Source of the DNA: a virus
Virus record (IMG/VR): IMGVR_UViG_3300048834_000455
Coordinates: 1 to 64,000 of that record
Strand: one strand, 5' to 3'
DNA length: 64,000 nucleotides
The notes below the pieces were generated by a model. It had not been told where the DNA came from and did no database searches. It saw only the letters and a list, made by a program, of their open reading frames with translations. Shown here piece after piece: positions 6,294 to 47,494 of this stretch. The translations under genes and the position numbers were made by a program. The first letter of the stretch is position 1. Each line of letters opens with the position of its first letter.

Positions 6294-6389
6294 ATGACCG
6301 CACTTGACCAAGCCTGGATCAACCTGGGCTTCTCGCTCTCGCTACTCTTCGCGGCCCTCGCCATCTTCTGGCGCACGGCAAAGCCCTGA
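6294..6389 (+). CDS. 31-aa single-span membrane peptide, possible holin
   Basis: A short frame with a strong AAAGGAG 6 bases before its ATG encodes 31 residues: a few polar residues, one hydrophobic helix (about residues 10-27, rich in Leu, Phe and Ala) and a basic end R-T-A-K-P. It lies at the end of the late operon and overlaps the 3' end of the convergent primase gene. The good ribosome site and single helix fit a small lysis or accessory membrane peptide. Function is inference only. Confidence 0.55.
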   Translation: MTALDQAWINLGFSLSLLFAALAIFWRTAKP

Positions 6390-8643
6390 TCCACCTGACG
6401 GCCCTAACCGTCCACTCAGTGGGAACGATGCCCGCAACGACAGCACGCCGGTGTGCACAATCCCACAGGTGCCAAAGAGTCGCGACCTTGGCGGCCAGAG
6501 TCGGAAGCCTGTTGGCCCAGGCCCTGACGTGGTAAAGGTCGCCCTCTGGTCGGTACTGCGGTCCGAGCCAGGCTGACAGCTCCGTAAGGGCTTCGGCGCC
6601 GTCGTCGGAAATCGCCAAGGCCAGGCGCTCCGGAGGCTGACCGTTCACGGGGGTGATGGGAGGTAGCAGTCGGCGGATGGTGTCGCGATAGTCGGCCATC
6701 AGGCTTTCAGGTATGGGCTTGGCGCTACGCACGTCGCGATAGCCAGCACGAGGCAGGGCGAACACCCAGAAAAAGCGCTCCAGTAGCCCGCGCCCCGAGA
6801 ACAGTTGGTTCATGAGGACGCCTCGAAGGTGTACGGGCTGGCTCATGACGAGCATGGCCAACGAGGGTCGCTCGGAGAAGTAGGAGCCTCCCGAAATGGT
6901 GTCCTTGGCCAGAAACTCACCCGAGAACGCGGACATGTAGACCGTTGCCACCTCAGCACGCTGTGAATACTTGCCGGCCATTCCCTCGAAGGGGCCACCC
7001 TCCGCGGAGAGCAGACCGATTGAACCCTGCTCGGCCAGCAGGCTGGCCAGTTTCTCCGGGGTCACGTCCTGGCAAGTGAGGCGCTTGGGTCGGAGAGCGG
7101 CTAGTGCGTTGAGGCGTCGGATGTGGTCGGCCAACTCGGCCCGAAGGTCGTCTTCGCCCTTGCTGGCCCTCTTGAGCAGCGCCGTCCGTCTGCTCTCGAG
7201 CAGTTGGCGTTCGGCCTCCTGCTCGGCGAGCTCGTCGCGGTAAGCCTCTCTGGCTTCAGCTTCGTGGGCGTACAGGGGGGAAGCAAGGTGCGCGATGTCG
7301 GCGCTCTTTCGCTCGGCGCTGTCGGCCCCCACCCCAGCGGCCACGGCGAGATTCTCAAGGCGCTGGCCAATCTTGACATAGTACTGCCCGTGGGTCGCCG
7401 TAGAAATCACACAGGTTGCGATGGCCTGGGGGTTGTCTCGGGGCGTCTGGTTGCACTCGCTGACGGCGTCGGTTACGGCTTCCAGTGACTCCGGCAAGCA
7501 CCCGGTCGGAGGCTCAGGGGTCTCCCAGGCGTCAAGGGGAAGGATCTCCGGCCAATCAAACTCGGTCTCAGGATCCTGGGACAATTGGGACGGAAAGGAA
7601 TCAATCGGCTCGGCATCCGGGTGAGAGTGCCGGGTCCCGTTACCGTTGGTGGGCACGGTGCTCTTGCCGTTCGCCTCCGTCTTGGGGCGAGGTGGGGTGT
7701 AGAACTCCCTGGTCAGCGCGATGGCGCCGCTCACAGTGCCTTCTCCGTAAAGCTCACCAGCCCGCGCGGGTCGGTCCCATTTGGGACGGTAGAGCCCGGA
7801 AGCCCGGAAGGCAGAGTCGACGCGGGCGGGGTCGCCCTGGAGATAAAAGGCAAGCTTCGAGCAAAGCCAGCCGTCCGCCGTGCTTTGGTCCCCATACCAC
7901 GCGCCCCAATCGCCACGGTCATAGAGGGCAATGAACTTGTCGCCATCCTTCGAGCGGCGGGCTACGTCCAACAGCTCTTGATCGGACAACGAGACGGGTT
8001 CACTGGCTTTGGGCTTGTTCGCTGACGCAGGCCTTCTTTTAGCGGCGGCTCGCTCGGTCCGATGGGCCAGGGCGCCCTCGTGGAGCCGGCGAACGTTCTC
8101 TCCGCTATCCGGCAACGTGCCCCCATGCGAGAGATGATGGGCATGCCCGGTTATCGTGAAGTAGCGGGAGCCTGGATATATCTCAGTGACGACCCCGGGT
8201 CGAGGATACCCATCGAACTTGCACCCCGGTGGCAGCGACAATCCAGGTGCATGGACAAACCCCTTAATGCCACGGCCAGAGGGGCTAACCTCCCAGTACG
8301 CTGGTATGTCGGCGATGATTTCAGCAACCTGCCCGTCGAGCACCCCATCCGACGAAATACAATCATCGAAATCGACACCGACAAAATCCGTTCCCCCAAG
8401 CATGAACCCAATGCCAGTGACTGAGTACTTAGCCATGGCTTTGACAGCCGCCCCAAAGCCGACCCCCGACGCGGGAAGGGTGGCGTTGACGGGCAGGCCG
8501 TTACGGGGGTCGACGGGGATTTTAGTAATCTTGCCGTCCCTGTCTTCCGTGTTCCACAGGATGAACGAGGGCACAGTCTTGAGGTCGTCAGGAATGTTTT
8601 CCAGTTGGAGGTCGGCCGCTCCGATCTTGATTGGCGCGTTCAT
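6319..8643 (-). CDS. Primase/polymerase-type replication protein (NrS-1-like, DUF3987)
   Basis: 774 aa. The N-terminal part (about 1-190) has G-F-M-L-G-G ... G-V-D-F-D-D-C and a later S-G-R-G-I-K strand, as in primase-polymerase (PrimPol-like) domains of the NrS-1 phage type; the Asp pair would bind metal. Residues about 245-300 carry the helical segment with F-R-A-S-G-L-Y-R-x-K-W-D typical of this family. The rest, up to about 740, is DUF3987-like. The final 30 residues (R/W/P-rich) look unlike the family and overlap the convergent gene, so the end may be altered. Expected job: priming DNA synthesis. ATGA overlap with the gene before it. Confidence 0.85.
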   Translation of the reverse strand: MNAPIKIGAADLQLENIPDDLKTVPSFILWNTEDRDGKITKIPVDPRNGLPVNATLPASGVGFGAAVKAMAKYSVTGIGFMLGGTDFVGVDFDDCISSDGVLDGQVAEIIADIPAYWEVSPSGRGIKGFVHAPGLSLPPGCKFDGYPRPGVVTEIYPGSRYFTITGHAHHLSHGGTLPDSGENVRRLHEGALAHRTERAAAKRRPASANKPKASEPVSLSDQELLDVARRSKDGDKFIALYDRGDWGAWYGDQSTADGWLCSKLAFYLQGDPARVDSAFRASGLYRPKWDRPARAGELYGEGTVSGAIALTREFYTPPRPKTEANGKSTVPTNGNGTRHSHPDAEPIDSFPSQLSQDPETEFDWPEILPLDAWETPEPPTGCLPESLEAVTDAVSECNQTPRDNPQAIATCVISTATHGQYYVKIGQRLENLAVAAGVGADSAERKSADIAHLASPLYAHEAEAREAYRDELAEQEAERQLLESRRTALLKRASKGEDDLRAELADHIRRLNALAALRPKRLTCQDVTPEKLASLLAEQGSIGLLSAEGGPFEGMAGKYSQRAEVATVYMSAFSGEFLAKDTISGGSYFSERPSLAMLVMSQPVHLRGVLMNQLFSGRGLLERFFWVFALPRAGYRDVRSAKPIPESLMADYRDTIRRLLPPITPVNGQPPERLALAISDDGAEALTELSAWLGPQYRPEGDLYHVRAWANRLPTLAAKVATLWHLWDCAHRRAVVAGIVPTEWTVRAVRWIRALPCARRWRGPRRVARARSPG

Positions 8644-11485: not shown

Positions 11486-11568
11486 TGCTGGCGTGGTAGG
11501 ATGGTGGCAACAGGTTCGACTCCTACCTGACTCGCCACTAAACGCAAGGGCTTCGGCCCATAGAATGC

Positions 11569-14677: not shown

Positions 14678-15745
14678 CTAGCTCACCTCCAGCCCAAGGA
14701 CACCCTTGAGGTAGTTGGCCGTAGCCGTGACGTGAGCCGAGGTCTTCTGGACCACCCCACCGGTCAGCGCCTTGCCCTCCCAATGCGGGGCCGAGCGTAG
14801 CCAGTTGACGTCCTCGAGAGGCTGGAGTCGCCCCTCCCAGTCGCTGTGCTCCGAGACCAGAGCTTCGCCGGCCACTCCGAGAGCTTGCAGAGCCACGGCG
14901 TGAGCGTGAACGGTGTCTTGCCGAAGCTCGGCGCTCTGGACTTGGCCGAGGCGAGCGCGCGACCAATCGGGGATGCAGTTGCCGACCTCTTCCCAGAAGC
15001 GGTGAGCCAGAGCCGCCTGCTGCTTCGTTGGCGAACCCTTGCGGCCAATCCCGAGCAGAGCCTGCGTGGCCTGGTGGATCGCGCCGATGGTGAACAGCTT
15101 GCGACTGGCCTTGCCAATGCTGGGCTTCTCCATCTCGGTCAGCCCCCGGAAGGTCGGATTCCTGGTGGCTAGATCGCGGGCGAGGTCAGCCATGGCGTCG
15201 CGGTGATCATACAGCACACCGAGACTCTTGGCGGGCTTGGCGCCGTGGAAGTTCAGGTCCGAGAAGAGCTGCTGCGAACGCTTCAGGCCAGCGTCTATGA
15301 ACAGCACCACGGACAGGCTCTCGCTCGCCAACTCGGGCCGCTCCTTGATGGCGCGGATGATGGCCGCCCTTCGGTGCTGGCCGTCGTTGACGAGGATGGT
15401 GGCCGACATTGGCACGTGGAGAGTCCCAATGTTGTGGTTGCCCTCGCTGGCCTCGAACCGGACCTCGGCGGCGATGCTCGCGATGATGGGCGGGAGCACG
15501 TAGTCGTTGGCGTTGTCCACGAGATAGCGAGCAATCCCAGGCACTCGCGAGGGGTTGAGCACTCGTTGCGCCCGGAGCTCGGGGCTCAGCTCTTCCTCGT
15601 CAATCACGAGGATTCGGGGGATTAGCTGGAGCGGGCACATGATCGAGAAGTAGGAGCGACCGGCCTGGATGCCGCGCAGAGCTGCGAACGAGTAGGCCAT
15701 GGTTTCCACGCGGGGCGGGGTGGGTTTGGTTTGAGTCTTAGACAT
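14678..15745 (-). CDS. dndB: DndB-like DGQHR-domain protein
   Basis: 355 aa from the ATG at 15745 (GAAAGGAC upstream). Residues 121-125 are D-G-Q-H-R within I-L-V-N-D-G-Q-H-R-R-A-A-I, the defining motif of the DndB family; S-R-V-P-G-I-A-R-Y-L, F-S-D-L-N and N-P-T-F segments also fit. In hosts DndB is associated with dndCDE (DNA phosphorothioation) and represses or limits modification. No dndA, C, D or E gene is visible in the window, so this is a lone copy. It may alter a host Dnd system or have another DNA-related job. Adjacent genes are short early genes in the same direction. Confidence 0.8.
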   Translation of the reverse strand: MSKTQTKPTPPRVETMAYSFAALRGIQAGRSYFSIMCPLQLIPRILVIDEEELSPELRAQRVLNPSRVPGIARYLVDNANDYVLPPIIASIAAEVRFEASEGNHNIGTLHVPMSATILVNDGQHRRAAIIRAIKERPELASESLSVVLFIDAGLKRSQQLFSDLNFHGAKPAKSLGVLYDHRDAMADLARDLATRNPTFRGLTEMEKPSIGKASRKLFTIGAIHQATQALLGIGRKGSPTKQQAALAHRFWEEVGNCIPDWSRARLGQVQSAELRQDTVHAHAVALQALGVAGEALVSEHSDWEGRLQPLEDVNWLRSAPHWEGKALTGGVVQKTSAHVTATANYLKGVLGLEVS

Positions 15746-15770
15746 GTGGTCCTTTCTATATAGAGGGGGG

Positions 15771-16118
15771 TCAAACTTCGTCTTCGGCCAGCGCCACAGG
15801 GTCCCAGCCAAGGTGATACTCGCCGAACCACTGCCCCACGTGCTCCACCCCATCCACACTCACCGTGAACTCGGTGTCGCCAGGGATCGCGAGGTCAGCG
15901 CAGATGGCCGCGTGAGCCGCCGTGGTGACCGCCTCGAGCTGGTCGGCGTTCAAATCGGCAAGGCGCAATGTGTCGAAGGTGACGGCGGCCTCGGTGGTCT
16001 GTGCGAAGGTTAGCTTCAGCCGGGTGTCGTCGGCCTCGCGGCACCCGCAGTCTCGCGCGTCGGCGAGGCAGTCTGGGCACTGGTGCTTCTTCAGGGGCTC
16101 TTGGTAGTCGCAGCGCAT
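15771..16118 (-). CDS. Zinc-ribbon N-terminus, hypothetical protein
   Basis: 115 aa. Starts with a cysteine cluster (C3, then C-P-D-C-L ... C-G-C) likely to hold zinc, followed by an acidic alpha/beta body with F-T-V-S-V-D-G-V-E-H-V-G-Q-W-F-G-E-Y. The single-base overlap ATG/TGA with the upstream gene indicates coupling. No known function. Confidence 0.7.
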   Translation of the reverse strand: MRCDYQEPLKKHQCPDCLADARDCGCREADDTRLKLTFAQTTEAAVTFDTLRLADLNADQLEAVTTAAHAAICADLAIPGDTEFTVSVDGVEHVGQWFGEYHLGWDPVALAEDEV

Positions 16119-18522: not shown

Positions 18523-19578
18523 ATGCACCGCGGCGACATCACTTTTCACTGGCACCGAGACCCTATCGGGTATGAGGTAAAGCCTGATATCAGGTATGAG
18601 AAGAACCCGGATCGAAGCGATAGAGAGGTGAGGGAGGGGCTGGCGATATGGGAGAAGAGCGCCATAGGGGCGGCGGAGACAACTTGGCCGCTCACGCCCA
18701 ATCCGGTGACAGGTGAATGCGAAAATGACGGCTCTGTCCTTTTGGTTAGCCAACTCGCGGAAGTAGAACTCACCAAGGCCGGCCTTGAGAAGTGGTGCAA
18801 TCGGCACGGCCTGCTATTCACCGGGGAAGAGCGGTTGCTGCGAGACGCAAAGGGCTTCCTTACCCCTGGCTGCCCCAACAACAGGGTTGTCAACCTGGTC
18901 GAAAGCTACAAGGATCCAATCCGACAAGCGAAGGCATTCATGGCGTTCCTGTCAATGATGCAGACAGGAATCGACCCAGGCTATATAAGCCCGCACCCAC
19001 TCGCTAAGGCACTCGAGGCTCACGGGGTGCCCACCAACCGCTTCCCCGGGTTAGGATATCTCAACATTTTCGAAGCCAGCCCCGAGTGGGAACCCATTCC
19101 GCCAGCCTGGCCGGGGCAGGAATTCAAACCTGATGACGTCCCGCTGATGGCGCAAAGGATCCTTTGGTCCTTTCTGTTCAAGGTGCTCAAAGAAAAGGTC
19201 AACCTTGTCTCTGTTGTGGAGCAAACGGGGATGGCTGAAAGGATGGCGCTTAGGCCTGTCGACTTCGAGGCAGCCATTTGGTTGCAGGCTTCGTTCCATC
19301 TTCACGAAGGGAAACACGCCAGGGTGTGCCCCATCTGCAACAAAGTCTATGAGGTGAGCGCTGAGACCCCGAAGGGTCCCACGTCTCAGCGCTATTGTGG
19401 AGGCAGGTCCAGCAAGACTTGCAAAGTTCGGGCCAACGAGCGCCGCCGGGATAAGGCTTTTGAGCTATTCAAGGCTGGCGCGAATGTCCAGGAGGTTCTA
19501 GAGCAAGTGAACGGGATGGGGTTCGGAGTATCTAAGCGGGATACAATCGAGGGCTGGAGGGCGAAGGTCAATGGCTAG
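18523..19578 (+). CDS. CGNR-like zinc-finger protein of the left lysogeny region
   Basis: 351 aa. The first 270 residues are mostly helical, with N-L-V-E-S-Y-K-D-P and a late A-I-W-L-Q segment. The end carries C-P-I-C-N-K ... R-Y-C-G-G ... C-K-V-R-A-N-E-R-R-R, a CGNR-type zinc knuckle followed by a basic helix, as in a family of bacterial DNA-binding proteins. Its stop overlaps the integrase start (ATGGCTAG), so the two are translated together. A regulator of lysogeny or integration is a fair guess. Confidence 0.7.
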   Translation: MHRGDITFHWHRDPIGYEVKPDIRYEKNPDRSDREVREGLAIWEKSAIGAAETTWPLTPNPVTGECENDGSVLLVSQLAEVELTKAGLEKWCNRHGLLFTGEERLLRDAKGFLTPGCPNNRVVNLVESYKDPIRQAKAFMAFLSMMQTGIDPGYISPHPLAKALEAHGVPTNRFPGLGYLNIFEASPEWEPIPPAWPGQEFKPDDVPLMAQRILWSFLFKVLKEKVNLVSVVEQTGMAERMALRPVDFEAAIWLQASFHLHEGKHARVCPICNKVYEVSAETPKGPTSQRYCGGRSSKTCKVRANERRRDKAFELFKAGANVQEVLEQVNGMGFGVSKRDTIEGWRAKVNG

Positions 19579-20245
19579 AGCGGACGGTAAAGACCGTGGA
19601 CTATTCCAGAAGCCAGCCAACTCCGGCGTGTGGTGGATTCGATTTGCCGACCACCGCAAGCGCGAGCGGCGCTTTAAGGTCGGCAAAAAGAGCGATGCCC
19701 AGAAAGCCTATGCCCACAAGAAGCAGATCGTCCAGAAGATCAAGCTGGGGACCCTCCCCGAAACAGCTCTGGACGGCGAGGACATTCCGACCCTGAAGGA
19801 ATACCTCGAATCGATCACCCCAGAGCTAGAGCAGAAAAAGAGCTGGCGAGACGATCAGCGCTTCCTTAAACGGTGGGTAGCGATGCTCGGAAGCTACGGG
19901 ATCGACGAAATCCAGGCCAAGCATGCGGTGAAACGACGAACAGCTCAGCTCGCCAAGGGTAAAAAGCCCGCGACCGTAAACCGAGAGACGGCGTTCCTCA
20001 AGGCTGCCTTGACCAGAGCGGTACGCGATGGGGTTCTCGAGAAGAATCCCCTAGCCGGCTTCAAGATGCTGCCCGAGAACAACGAGCACGACCTTTATCT
20101 CACCGAGCCCCAGGAGGTGCGCCTGGCCGCCGTCATGGCGCCAGAGGACTTCGAGGTGGTAGCGCCATTTAGTTATAGTTTATGGCAGACATCTAGTCAA
20201 TATGGTTGGCAAATGTTTTTGGCAGACATATACTCAAGGCTATGA
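19571..20245 (+). pseudogene. Tyrosine integrase, truncated before the catalytic domain
   Basis: 224 codons. The N-terminal part has the AP2/SAM-like arm domain (R-G-L-F-Q-K-P-A-N-S-G-V-W-W-I-R) and the core-binding domain ending at E-K-N-P-L-A-G-F-K and L-T-E-P-Q-E-V-R-L. In intact relatives the Arg of the G-x-R-x-x-E motif follows soon after. Here the sequence changes near base 20160 into an AT-rich stretch and ends after about 25 unrelated residues, with no catalytic Arg, His or Tyr. It cannot recombine DNA alone. The join carries TGGCAGACAT repeats. Confidence 0.8.
20183..20229. repeat. TGGCAGACAT direct repeats at the integrase break
   Basis: TGGCAGACAT at 20183-20192 and again at 20220-20229, 37 bases apart, in a short AT-rich segment. 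A related TATGACAGAC follows at 20241-20250. They mark the point where integrase homology stops, as expected of a recombination scar or the edge of a lost element. Confidence 0.6.
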
Positions 20246-20658: not shown

Positions 20659-20746
20659 AGGCACAGGATAGCAGGCGGGGCGAGGGCAATCGGTGACGGT
20701 TGTCACTGGGGCGGCTGGGTGTCACTCCTTGCCGCACGATTTGCAC

Positions 20747-20768
20747 GGGTGTCCCGTCAGGTGTCCCC
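20747..20768 (+). promoter_or_regulatory. Integrase arm-type sites, left pair
   Basis: GGGTGTCCC (20747) and AGGTGTCCCC (20759) are direct repeats with 12-base phasing. Weaker versions GGTTGTCAC (20697) and GGGTGTCAC (20717) lie further left. The same pair with the same 12-base phasing lies on the other side of the tRNA half. Confidence 0.65.
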
Positions 20769-20841
20769 ATGTCGGCCGAACTGAGCTGCACTGTGCGGCA
20801 AACCCTTACTTCTCTTGGTGGGCCTCGAATCTCCATTTTGC

Positions 20842-20871
20842 TTGACCTTTCTCGTGAAACTGTGCTATTTT
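20842..20871 (+). promoter_or_regulatory. Promoter-like sequence before the tRNA half
   Basis: TTGACC (20842-20847), 18-base spacer, TATTTT (20866-20871), 10 bases before the first tRNA base. It is placed as a tRNA promoter would be. Confidence 0.5.
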
Positions 20872-20881
20872 CTCGAGGCTC

Positions 20882-20923
20882 GCCGGGATAGCTCAGGGGT
20901 AGAGCAACTCACTCGTAATGATC
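20882..20923 (+). tRNA. 5' half of tRNA-Thr(CGU), attachment-site core
   Basis: GCCGGGA acceptor strand, TA, D-arm GCTC/GAGC, anticodon stem ACTCA and loop CTCGTAA (anticodon CGU at 20914-20916). Three bases of the 3' stem (TGA) follow, then tRNA sequence stops: no T-arm, no 3' acceptor strand. It cannot make a tRNA. Lying beside integrase and between arm repeats, it is best read as the att core, with strand exchange in the anticodon arm. Confidence 0.8.
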
Positions 20924-20957
20924 GAGGCTCCCCCGCAACCACAACGACTGCCATCGT

Positions 20958-20979
20958 GGGTGTCCCCAAAGGTGTCCCC
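20958..20979 (+). promoter_or_regulatory. Integrase arm-type sites, right pair
   Basis: GGGTGTCCCC (20958) and AGGTGTCCCC (20970), direct repeats 12 bases apart, in the same orientation as the left pair at 20747/20759. Confidence 0.65.
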
Positions 20980-20981
20980 AA

Positions 20982-22034
20982 CTATGGTTCTTCCTCTCGG
21001 TCGAGCACCTTGACCGCCTCGTGCAGATGGTCGGGAGAGAGCTTCGCGTACCTCTCCGTGATAGTGATCGAGCGGTGTCCCGCGAGAAGCTGGATGGTCC
21101 GCAGAGGTGTCCCTGCCATTGCCAACCGGCTGCAGTAGGTATGTCGCAGGTCGTGCCATCGCAGGTCGCGGATTCCGGCCTTCGCTAGCGCGGGCTTGAA
21201 GTGCTTTCGGTAGAAGTTGACGCCTGACCACGCCGTCCCCGTCAAAGGGTGGGGGAACAGCCACTCTGACCCCAGCGCCTCGGCGAGCTCCAATTGCTTG
21301 ATGATGAGCCTCCGCAGGTCGGCCCCCATCGGAACCTCGCGAGGGTAGCCGCTCTTCGTCAGGGGTAACCGGAGAACATTGGCGTCCAGGAGTACCTGGT
21401 TCGTCTTCGCCAGGAACTGCTCGGACTGTCTCATGCCCGATAGGAAGGCGATCTGCACGAAGCGCCACTTCCACGGCTCCATGTGTTCACGTAACCGTGC
21501 CTCCTCGCTGTCGCTAAGCCAACGTAAGCGGCCGTGGTCCTCCTTGAGCGCCTTGTATCCGCGGAGAGGGTTGGCCGGCAAGATGCGGTCTCTGACTGCC
21601 AAATTCAGCAGCGCATGGAGTCGCCTGGTCACGCGATTGACGCTGGCCGGTTGAAGCCCTCGCGCCAGCTCCTTCTGTTGCCACAGGCTCACCATCATCG
21701 GCGAAATCTTGGCAATCTTCGGATCGTTGAGGTCTCGGACCAGCCGGTTCTCTATGTGCTCGTGGTAGCGGTGTTGACGGTTGCGGGCCTGGTCGTCAGC
21801 GCGGTATCGCTTGGCCAGCTCGGAGAGGCGAACCGGCGTCTGCATCATGTCCGCTTGGATCTGATCCATCATCTCGAGGATCTTCTGTGCGGCCTTCTTG
21901 CCGTCTTTGCCGGGTCCACACTTGCGGCGGAATCGACGGCCGGTGTCGAGCTTCTTGTCTACCCAGTAATCGCCCGTCGTTGGGTCTTGTCGAATGTATT
22001 GCAGCTTCGTGCTAACTAGTGTGGGAATAGCCAT
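20982..22034 (-). CDS. int: Tyrosine recombinase / phage integrase
   Basis: 350 aa from the ATG at 22034, which has AAAGGAG upstream; a longer frame to 22178 is not needed. Arm-binding start, SAM-like core-binding domain to about residue 160, then the catalytic domain with R202 (S-G-M-R-Q-S-E), K227, H294/R297 (W-H-D-L-R-H-T), H320 (L-L-A-G-H) and the nucleophile Y329. All catalytic residues are present. The stop lies 2 bases from the right arm repeats of the att site, so it should act on that site at a tRNA-Thr gene. Confidence 0.95.
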   Translation of the reverse strand: MAIPTLVSTKLQYIRQDPTTGDYWVDKKLDTGRRFRRKCGPGKDGKKAAQKILEMMDQIQADMMQTPVRLSELAKRYRADDQARNRQHRYHEHIENRLVRDLNDPKIAKISPMMVSLWQQKELARGLQPASVNRVTRRLHALLNLAVRDRILPANPLRGYKALKEDHGRLRWLSDSEEARLREHMEPWKWRFVQIAFLSGMRQSEQFLAKTNQVLLDANVLRLPLTKSGYPREVPMGADLRRLIIKQLELAEALGSEWLFPHPLTGTAWSGVNFYRKHFKPALAKAGIRDLRWHDLRHTYCSRLAMAGTPLRTIQLLAGHRSITITERYAKLSPDHLHEAVKVLDREEEP

Positions 22035-45010: not shown

Positions 45011-45278
45011 GTCCTCAAGACAAATGGCGGCTACTGTAATACAATTAGGACCTAGGCAGGATAAGGATTTGAGCACGATACACACCATGCGCGTAATACG
45101 CAAAAACAAGGGCCTGAAGATGGTCCAACTGGCCGAGCTAACCGGCATCCATATCGCCGATCTTTCGAAGGTCGAGACTGGCGAGCGCCGGCCTTTCCCC
45201 GGGTGGCGCCGTCGCATCGCCGAGGCTCTTGAGACGCCCGAGGCGGAGCTGTTCCCAAGCGAGGCGGAGCAGCCATGA
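45006..45278 (+). CDS. XRE-family HTH regulator
   Basis: Up to 90 aa; the start may be ATG 45006, ATG 45024 or a later codon, none with a clear ribosome site. The conserved part is R-V-I-R-K-N-K-G-L-K-M-V-Q-L-A-E-L-T-G-I-H, then D-L-S-K-V-E-T-G-E-R, a standard XRE domain with L-F at the end. Probably controls the replication genes that follow, at a rare operon break. Confidence 0.7.
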   Translation: MRSSRQMAATVIQLGPRQDKDLSTIHTMRVIRKNKGLKMVQLAELTGIHIADLSKVETGERRPFPGWRRRIAEALETPEAELFPSEAEQP

Positions 45279-47494
45279 GTGCACTGTTTCGCGAATACGC
45301 GCTAACCCATCTACAGTCTCGGCCTCGCGCCGCGGACAATGGGCTCTGGCATGACTTTCGATGCCAGCAACCAGGCCATGACGACCGTTCGGCGAGTTGC
45401 TCCATCAATACCGAGGACGGCCGCGTGCGATGCCAAGCTCCCTCCTGCAACTTTGATGGGTGGATCGATGAATACGCCTCGGAATGTGGCATGCCCGCGC
45501 CCCCCGATAAGCCAGGGTGGAAGGATGGGAAGCCGATTCGAGACGAGGATCTCGACAAGCTCAAGACCAGTACACCGCTCTCGACCAGGGTCCGCCCATC
45601 CGCAAACTATCCTTATGACGACGCGGACCACAAGCCATACATGCGGGTTCAGCGCCTCGACTTTGGGGACGGCCGCAAGAGCTACCCGCAAAGCGCCTTC
45701 GTCAACGGTGAATGGACCAGCGGCCTACCTAAAGATTTCGAGCGTATTCTCTATCGTCTTCCCGACCTGCTAAAGAGCCGCGACGCTCTCGTGCTGGTGT
45801 GCGAGGGCGAGAAGAGCGCCGACCTCGCGAGACGCCTCGGCTTCACCGCGACAACGGCTTCGGGGGGCGCCGGCAACGCGCACAAGACCCGCGACTGGAC
45901 ACCGCTTGCCGACAAAGATGTCGTGATCATCCGGGACAACGACGAGGCCGGTATGGCCCATGCGCGACAGGTCGCAGGCCTTCTCATCGGCATTGCGCGG
46001 AGCATTCGCATCATCACCATGCCCGACGTGGCCGAGAAGGGCGACCTGGTGGATTGGGTGGAGGCTGGTGGTGACGCCGACGGGCTGCGGGAGCTTATCG
46101 AGGCTACGCCGGCTTTCGGGCTGCCCGTTCCGCCACCACCACCACCAACCTTGTCCCGGGTTTTCGCCGAGAGGGCCTTTGTCTGCAATGCCTGGGACCA
46201 CTTACCAACCGCGAATGTTCTCGCCAGCTTTCGGTCCAAGCAATTCAAGGACCCTGCCGCCCGAGCTGGCGCCCAAGCCATCAAGCGCATCCTCAAGAAC
46301 AACTCCGAGCTCGAACCTCTGGCCGTCGGAGCCGAGATGGGGCGAACCGGACACTTTGAACTCTGGCTGCAACTCGAGAAATTCAGCAACGAACGCCTCC
46401 AGCATCTGGGCATGGCGCGAGCCAGCACCTATAAGGCGTTCCGGGAGCATTGTTCTTGGGATAGCGGCCTGGCCTTTGTTCGAGACGCCGAGGAGTCGCA
46501 CGGGAGAGGATCGTTCCAGGACTGGATCGCTACCAGGCAAGAAGGTGTTGCTGAACTGCTGGCCCACGCGAGCACGACGGAACTCAAGACTCTAAAGACG
46601 CACGTCGAGGAATGGCTTGATGAGCTAATCGCCGGCCGAAAGAGCGAAGGCCTCTTTAACCTGGCGTTGCTGGCGCCCATCATCGGAGAGTCTGGCGGTG
46701 GGGATGTCATTGTTGGAATTGCTCCACCCAAAACCGGGAAGACCACGTTCGTCGGCAAGCTCATGACCGACCTGGCCAACGAGAACGTGAAGAGCCTTTA
46801 CGGGCAACTTGAGATGAGAATGGATCAGGTCGTCAAGCGCGAGGTAGCAAAGCTCCTCCAGAAACCCGTGAAAGACGTGACCGAGGCCGACGCTAGAGAA
46901 CTCCGGAAGAGCGGCAAGCTTAGCCACTTGGCAAACATCTACATGACCAAGAGGTGCACGACCCTGAGTTCCTATCGCGCCGAAGTCTCGTCCATTCTCG
47001 CGAAGAACCCTGACATCAAGTTCTGGGTAACCGACTATGCGGAATGCCTTCAGCGCTTTGGCGATGGCGCCAACCGCGTCGACGAGTCCGAGGCCATTGC
47101 CAAGATGATCAAGGAGACCGCCATCGCGTTCAACGTGTGCGCCTTCCTCCTGGTCCAGCCCACCAAGGAATACTCCAAGGAGGGTGCCGCTGGACCCAAG
47201 CCTTACCACGCCAAAAACTCCGGCAAATGGGAACAGGATGCTCAAGCGATGATCTTCCTGCAATCGCCGGCCCGCTTCTTCGCGGATATGCCCAAGGAGT
47301 ACCTAGAGGTTCATGTTATGGCCTCTCGCGACTCCGATACCGGTGTTATCCCTCTCCGTTGGAACCCAGCGACATTTGATTATGAGCTATGGAAGGGCCC
47401 GGTACCCGCTGGTGGTGGGCGACCCCTGAAACAGCAGACTGAGACCCAGCGCTATGCGCTTGACCAGGTAGAAATGGAAGACATCCCCCTATGA
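45275..47494 (+). CDS. Primase-helicase (Toprim plus DnaB-like)
   Basis: 739 aa. N-terminal zinc-binding/CHC-like part (P-G-H-D-D-R-S-A-S-C-S-I, then C-x-x-x-x-C), a Toprim domain (V-C-E-G-E-K-S-A-D-L, R-D-N-D-E-A-G), a helical middle, and a RecA-fold helicase with Walker A P-P-K-T-G-K-T-T and downstream D-Y-A-E. Layout as in T7 gp4-type bifunctional enzymes but with a longer middle. Unwinds and primes DNA at the fork. ATGA overlaps at both ends. Confidence 0.92.
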   Translation: MSALFREYALTHLQSRPRAADNGLWHDFRCQQPGHDDRSASCSINTEDGRVRCQAPSCNFDGWIDEYASECGMPAPPDKPGWKDGKPIRDEDLDKLKTSTPLSTRVRPSANYPYDDADHKPYMRVQRLDFGDGRKSYPQSAFVNGEWTSGLPKDFERILYRLPDLLKSRDALVLVCEGEKSADLARRLGFTATTASGGAGNAHKTRDWTPLADKDVVIIRDNDEAGMAHARQVAGLLIGIARSIRIITMPDVAEKGDLVDWVEAGGDADGLRELIEATPAFGLPVPPPPPPTLSRVFAERAFVCNAWDHLPTANVLASFRSKQFKDPAARAGAQAIKRILKNNSELEPLAVGAEMGRTGHFELWLQLEKFSNERLQHLGMARASTYKAFREHCSWDSGLAFVRDAEESHGRGSFQDWIATRQEGVAELLAHASTTELKTLKTHVEEWLDELIAGRKSEGLFNLALLAPIIGESGGGDVIVGIAPPKTGKTTFVGKLMTDLANENVKSLYGQLEMRMDQVVKREVAKLLQKPVKDVTEADARELRKSGKLSHLANIYMTKRCTTLSSYRAEVSSILAKNPDIKFWVTDYAECLQRFGDGANRVDESEAIAKMIKETAIAFNVCAFLLVQPTKEYSKEGAAGPKPYHAKNSGKWEQDAQAMIFLQSPARFFADMPKEYLEVHVMASRDSDTGVIPLRWNPATFDYELWKGPVPAGGGRPLKQQTETQRYALDQVEMEDIPL

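What the first reader, a model, noticed from the sequence alone, without database searches (positions are those of the whole stretch)
20697..20980. att site made of the 5' half of a tRNA-Thr with phased arm repeats on both sides
Bases 20882-20921 match a tRNA-Thr(CGU) from the acceptor strand through the anticodon arm and then stop. Phages usually carry the 3' half. A promoter-like element precedes it. GGGTGTCCC/AGGTGTCCCC pairs with identical 12-base phasing occur 114 bases left and 37 bases right of the core. This suggests an attP using the anticodon arm, where the phage would supply promoter and 5' half to the rebuilt tRNA, or the central junction of tandem prophages.
Basis: partly seen in the sequence, partly recalled or inferred. 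Interest (0 to 1): 0.75.

Follow-up and report, generated by a model that had tools for sequence, protein, structure and literature searches.

The report
Phage attP carrying tRNA-Thr 5' half
A temperate phage keeps, beside its integrase gene, a promoter and the front half of a host threonine tRNA gene, so on integration it probably supplies the front rather than the usual back half of that gene; this is an uncommon but known style of attachment site.

Summary
Bases 20882-20921 match nucleotides 1-40 of bacterial tRNA-Thr(CGU), 38/40 to the closest known gene; the record has no 3' half and no complete tRNA. GGTGTCCC-N4-GGTGTCCC occurs exactly twice in 64 kb, once on each side (0.03 expected). 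A sigma-70-like promoter sits just upstream. An integrase gene with all catalytic residues ends 2 bp past the right pair; its predicted fold best matches full-length lambda integrase. The order is lambda-like. The ends of the 89,905-bp record fall in open frames that join in frame, so this is most likely an attP inside one circular phage genome, not a chromosome junction. Eleven of 36 integrase relatives have a tRNA 3' part 41-46 bp past the int stop; none has an orphan 5' half there. 5'-fragment sites are a known minority: 159 of 3,919 islands in Islander, plus archaeal pTN3. No genome with an identical tRNA was found, so rebuilding of the tRNA from a phage promoter is inferred, not shown. 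Verdict: a new member of a known kind.

The parts
20747..20769 (+). P-arm pair of putative integrase arm-type sites (GGGTGTCCC + AGGTGTCCCC, 12-bp phasing)
   Evidence: doubled motif occurs only here and at 20958-20980 in 64 kb
20842..20871 (+). sigma-70-like promoter TTGACC-18-TATTTT with TG before the second hexamer, pointing into the tRNA half
   Evidence: 1 found, 0.1 expected; consensus match only
20873..20881 (+). left copy of perfect 9-bp direct repeat TCGAGGCTC abutting the tRNA half
   Evidence: function unexplained
20882..20921 (+). 5' half of a tRNA-Thr(CGU) gene (nt 1-40)
   Evidence: 38/40 to the nearest bacterial gene; no 3' half in the record
20912..20918 (+). anticodon loop CTCGTAA, inferred 7-bp crossover (overlap) region; anticodon CGT at 20914-20916
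   Evidence: sequence; position inferred from known anticodon-loop att sites, not tested
20922..20930 (+). right copy of the 9-bp direct repeat TCGAGGCTC
20958..20980 (+). P'-arm pair of putative arm-type sites, between core and int stop
21074..21081 (+). further single GGTGTCCC inside int; possible extra arm-type site
21106..21113 (+). further single GGTGTCCC inside int; possible extra arm-type site
20982..22034 (-). lambda-type tyrosine integrase, 350 aa from ATG (an upstream TTG start would give 398 aa)
   Evidence: PF00589 1.2e-22, phrog_1 1.1e-59; R-K-HxxR-H-Y set present; model mean pLDDT 84, best PDB match full-length lambda Int 1z1b
19571..20245 (+). truncated second integrase: N-terminal and core-binding part only, catalytic domain missing
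   Evidence: PF24624 and phrog_1; 40% identity over 86 aa to the intact one

Best explanation
This is the phage attachment site (attP) of a temperate phage with a lambda-type integrase. The integrase, bound to paired arm sites on both sides, recombines the anticodon-loop segment (20912-20918) with the same segment of the host tRNA-Thr(CGU) gene. The tRNA copy lies on the P side, so the int-distal junction (P-core-B') would become phage promoter plus phage 5' half plus host 3' half, a whole tRNA gene. The int-proximal junction (B-core-P') would keep the host promoter and an orphan 5' half. Shown here: the tRNA half, the phased arms on both sides, an integrase with all catalytic residues next to the P' arm, and phage genes on both sides. 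Inferred: the exact crossover, the identity of the host, expression from the phage promoter, and restoration of tRNA function.
For: tRNA half and its limits. Doubled arm motif only at these two places. Integrase family, catalytic residues and lambda-Int-like model with a three-strand-plus-helix N-terminal domain. Lambda-like order and distances. Phage genes both sides: tail-fibre-like gene, excisionase/regulator-like gene and integrase remnant on the left; repressor-like gene, replication, terminase, portal and tail on the right. Record ends join in frame inside one large open frame. Integrase relatives place tRNA cores at the same spot and orientation relative to int. The phage half joined to bacterial 3' halves is read as tRNA-Thr(CGT) in 68 of 143 cases. 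No complete phage tRNA that could compensate for a disrupted host gene. Precedents: 159 of 3,919 Islander islands have a 5' fragment (PMC4383910); pTN3 shares 41 bp with the 5' half of tRNA-Leu and separates the tRNA from its promoter (PMC5495485).
Against: No bacterial genome with the exact 40-mer and no lysogen junction found, so attB is unknown. The phage has A27, whereas none of the 125 bacterial pattern hits tallied has A at that place; joined to a host C43 this would leave an A-C mismatch at the outer end of the anticodon stem, though one viral contig, L200, has the same A27...C43 in a complete tRNA. Promoter is only a consensus match. Circularity rests on an in-frame join, not on terminal repeats. 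The 9-bp repeat flanking the half is unexplained.
Confidence: 0.76

Rival explanations
1. The record is an integrated prophage (or two adjacent ones) and 20882 marks the int-side junction: host promoter and host 5' half on the left, phage on the right. The host tRNA would have been broken, as in tRNA-dependent lysogeny.
For: An orphan 5' half next to int is what the int-side junction would look like. Left 20 kb differs somewhat in tetranucleotide signature, has its own primase-helicase and a broken integrase.
Against: The doubled arm motif lies 112 bp into the left side, which host DNA would not carry. Left genes look phage-like (tail fibre, excisionase-like, integrase). Record ends join in frame. 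The phage has no complete tRNA of its own to compensate.
Confidence: 0.12
2. Central junction of two tandem prophages, or a concatemer, rather than a circular monomer.
For: Sequence at such a junction is identical to attP; two integrase genes lie back to back on either side of the site.
Against: The two integrases are only 40% identical over 86 aa, so not two copies of one phage; a single circle explains the ends.
Confidence: 0.08
3. The half is a decayed tRNA gene or a decoy or regulatory RNA made from its own promoter, not part of integration.
For: A promoter precedes it; the downstream copy TCGAGGC resembles a T-loop, so an internal deletion of a whole tRNA is conceivable; the Rfam model aligns an acceptor-like 3' end.
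Against: Its place exactly between the paired arm sites and beside int is the att core position seen in relatives. The transcript has no unusual fold (z 0.47).
Confidence: 0.07

Closest known systems
tDNA islands and prophages with a 5' tRNA fragment (Islander, PMC4383910: 159 of 3,919; 3,760 have the 3' fragment)
   Same: Element carries, or displaces, a 5' tRNA fragment; tyrosine integrase; anticodon-centred site is one of the common classes
   Different: Those are integrated islands with both junctions seen; here only attP is seen and no host is known
pTN3-like integrases of Thermococcales (PMC5495485, PMC8371274)
   Same: attP/attB identity of 41 bp in the 5' half of a tRNA gene; rebuilt tRNA is cut off from its original promoter
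   Different: Archaeal, suicidal integrase whose own gene contains attP; here int is beside attP and attP has its own bacterial-type promoter
Lambda-type attP with tRNA 3' half (usual phage form; relatives such as L014, L023, L025, L039, L048)
   Same: Integrase family, tRNA orientation toward int, arm pairs between core and int stop
   Different: Identity block runs to the 5' end of the tRNA, not the 3' end
tRNA-dependent lysogeny (PMC10865867)
   Same: attB in a tRNA gene, no 3' half in attP, paired arm sites
   Different: There the shared core is about 10 bp and the phage carries a whole cognate tRNA; here there is a 40-nt match and no complete phage tRNA

Membership tests
Lambda-type tyrosine integrase | Catalytic R-K-HxxR-H-Y set | tested here: met
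   PF00589 1.2e-22; residues aligned with relatives
Lambda-type tyrosine integrase | N-terminal arm-binding domain (three strands and a helix) | tested here: met
   AlphaFold model strands 13-16, 22-28, 34-41, helix 42-63; best PDB match full-length lambda Int 1z1b/1z1g. Predicted fold only.
Lambda-type attP | Arm-type repeats on both sides of the core | tested here: met
   binding itself not testable
tRNA-gene attP (anticodon class) | Block identical to a host tRNA including the anticodon loop | tested here: inconclusive
   38/40 to known tRNA-Thr(CGU) genes; no exact host match in 84,980 species
5'-fragment tDNA element | Fragment reaches the 5' end, not the 3' end, of the tRNA | tested here: met
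   no 3' half in the record
5'-fragment tDNA element | Whole tRNA rebuilt at one junction after integration | not testable with these tools
   No lysogen found; sequence compatibility only
tRNA-dependent lysogeny | Phage carries a complete cognate tRNA gene | tested here: not met
   ARAGORN 0 in window and record, Rfam none above cut-off; record may lack a few bases at its ends

The most novel reading that the evidence does not exclude
The prophage permanently replaces the promoter of a host tRNA-Thr(CGU) gene with its own, so phage regulators acting near attP could set host tRNA-Thr(CGU) supply; and the exact 9-bp direct repeat around the 40-nt half records an insertion-like event by which a tRNA half was captured downstream of a pre-existing phage promoter.
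Probability: 0.15. Interest if true: 0.6.

Novelty: new member of a known kind. Interest (0 to 1): 0.36.

Why it matters
It is a clean bacterial-phage example of the rare 5'-fragment attP, in an integrase family whose other members with a visible tRNA part use the 3' half. It would let one test whether a phage promoter can take over a host tRNA gene and how the tRNA side of an attP can switch.

Tried and rejected
Exact 40-mer in IMG/VR and 84,980 species genomes: none. That phylum was then sampled (395 genomes): only that same MAG within 3 mismatches, so not a convincing host. The phylum of an Acidimicrobiia MAG (396 genomes): 4 within 3 mismatches, best 2. The same core in IMG/VR: 15 contigs, all with tRNA-Thr genes that continue into a 3' half, no other 5' half. 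No relative of the integrase region in annotated phages by DNA, and none of the left-side primase or of the end-spanning tail protein in IMG/VR. First idea that the 3'-half-plus-5'-half sequences at record 64.66-64.93 kb were partners of the Thr half: rejected, they have different acceptor stems and look like YrlA-type RNAs. First version of the D-arm test missed our own half because of a greedy pattern; redone with a random control. Even that version misses some class II tRNAs, so the negative for 5' halves in relatives also leans on ARAGORN.

Full report
What the window is. The window is bases 1-64000 of a virus record of 89,905 bases held as linear. Right of 21 kb lie an integrase, a repressor-like protein, replication genes, terminase, portal and tail genes. 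Left of 20 kb lie a tail-fibre-like gene, a primase-helicase, a DndB-like protein, an excisionase/regulator-like protein and the N-terminal part of a second integrase. The last open frame of the record (587 aa from a likely start, + strand) and the first one (230 aa, + strand) run off the two ends exactly in the same frame. Both ends are in tail-gene territory. I read this as one circular phage genome cut inside a tail gene. Chance would give frame agreement one time in three, so this is good but not conclusive evidence.

The observation. Bases 20882-20921 read GCCGGGA TA GCTC AGGGGTA GAGC A ACTCA CTCGTAA TGA. That is acceptor 5' strand, D arm, anticodon 5' strand, anticodon loop with CGT, and three bases of the 3' stem. 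The closest bacterial tRNA-Thr(CGU) found matches 38 of 40. Beyond TGA the similarity stops. ARAGORN finds no tRNA in the window or in the whole record. Rfam scores the half at 18.4 bits, under the cut-off of 29. The pair GGTGTCCC-N4-GGTGTCCC occurs at 20748-20767 and 20959-20978 and nowhere else in the window even with two mismatches; shuffles give 0.03. All six exact GGTGTCCC of the record lie within 366 bp here, on one strand. A sigma-70-like promoter, TTGACC-18-TATTTT, ends 10 bp before the tRNA half.

The integrase. The gene at 20982-22034 (minus strand) encodes a 350-aa tyrosine recombinase (PF00589, phrog_1) with the catalytic residues in place. Its AlphaFold model (mean pLDDT 84) has an N-terminal three-strand-plus-helix domain, and its best match among solved structures is full-length lambda integrase. 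The stop codon lies 2 bp right of the right-hand arm pair. The order P-arm pair, 112 bp, promoter and tRNA half with anticodon core, 37 bp, P'-arm pair, int stop follows lambda attP, where int also ends next to the P' arm (lambda layout from general knowledge).

Comparison within the integrase family. Of 36 relatives from IMG/VR with DNA beyond the int stop, eleven have a tRNA T arm 41-46 bp past the stop, pointing at int, that is a 3' half or a tRNA end. In several of them a pair of short direct repeats lies between the tRNA end and int (for example GTTAC...GTTAGC in L024, L025, L027). None has an orphan D arm there; ours has one at 93 bp and no T arm (chance per 510 bp 0.8% for T, 3.6% for D). 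So position and orientation of the tRNA relative to int are shared, while the side of the identity block is switched. The same anticodon arm elsewhere in IMG/VR occurs only in tRNA-Thr genes that continue into a 3' half (15 contigs).

Mechanism. With the tRNA half on the P side, crossover in the anticodon loop gives an int-distal junction made of phage promoter, phage 5' half and host 3' half, and an int-side junction made of host promoter and host 5' half running into phage DNA. Joining the phage half in silico to 3' halves of known bacterial tRNA-Thr(CGU) genes gives an ARAGORN tRNA-Thr(CGT) in 68 of 143 cases, including the closest ones. The crossover point, promoter use and host are inferred. 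The phage lacks a complete tRNA, which argues against tRNA-dependent lysogeny (PMC10865867). The left-hand arm pair and the phage genes on the left argue against an ordinary prophage-chromosome junction. A tandem-prophage junction would have the same sequence and cannot be told apart by the contig alone.

Host. The exact 40-mer is absent from one genome each of 84,980 species and from IMG/VR. A sample of 395 genomes of the phylum of the best match gave no second match within three mismatches, and a sample of 396 from the phylum of an Acidimicrobiia MAG gave four. The host remains unknown.

What is known. Islander counted 3,760 islands with a 3' and 159 with a 5' tRNA fragment (PMC4383910). Archaeal pTN3 integrates in the 5' half of a tRNA-Leu gene, shares 41 bp with it, and leaves the rebuilt tRNA separated from its promoter (PMC5495485; PMC8371274). 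The review states that rebuilt bacterial tRNA genes are expressed from their original promoter with very few exceptions (PMC8371274, citing Williams 2002). The finding belongs to this small class.

Left unexplained. The half is bounded exactly by a perfect 9-bp direct repeat, TCGAGGCTC (20873-20881, 20922-20930), the only 9-mer repeated at that distance in the record. It may be a scar of how the half was acquired. The second copy also resembles a T-loop, so a deleted tRNA is a weaker alternative.

Noticed in passing
L002 657-786 and 800-925 (record 64657-64786 and 64800-64925, outside the window): Two tandem RNAs shaped like permuted tRNAs: T arm, acceptor strand with GCCA, short loop, acceptor 5' strand, D arm, inside a basal stem. 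They resemble YrlA bacterial Y RNAs (RF02553, 14.1 and 21.2 bits, far below the cut-off of 69); single-strand folding shows the T arm and acceptor hairpin in both and the D arm only in the first. No TROVE/Ro60 gene in the record. Two Y-RNA-like genes in a phage look worth a separate study.
   Followed up: partly
window 11488-11536: A tRNA 3'-end-like element ending ...GGTTCGACTCCTACCTGACTCGCCA just upstream of a terminator-like hairpin; no 5' half nearby was recognised.
   Followed up: no
window 20873-20881 and 20922-20930: Perfect 9-bp direct repeat TCGAGGCTC exactly flanking the 40-nt tRNA half, like a target-site duplication.
   Followed up: partly
window 19571-20245: N-terminal remnant of a second, distantly related integrase just left of attP, suggesting the phage once swapped its integration module.
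   Followed up: partly
window 6319-8643 (-) and 45275-47494 (+): Two different primase-helicase genes (DUF3987/NrS-1-type and DnaB-type) in one phage record.
   Followed up: no
window 14678-15859 (-): DndB-family protein (PF14072, E 2.5e-120) in the phage; near full-length match.
   Followed up: no
record ends 1 and 89905: Open frames at the two ends join in frame, suggesting the 'linear' record is a circular genome without overlap left.
   Followed up: partly
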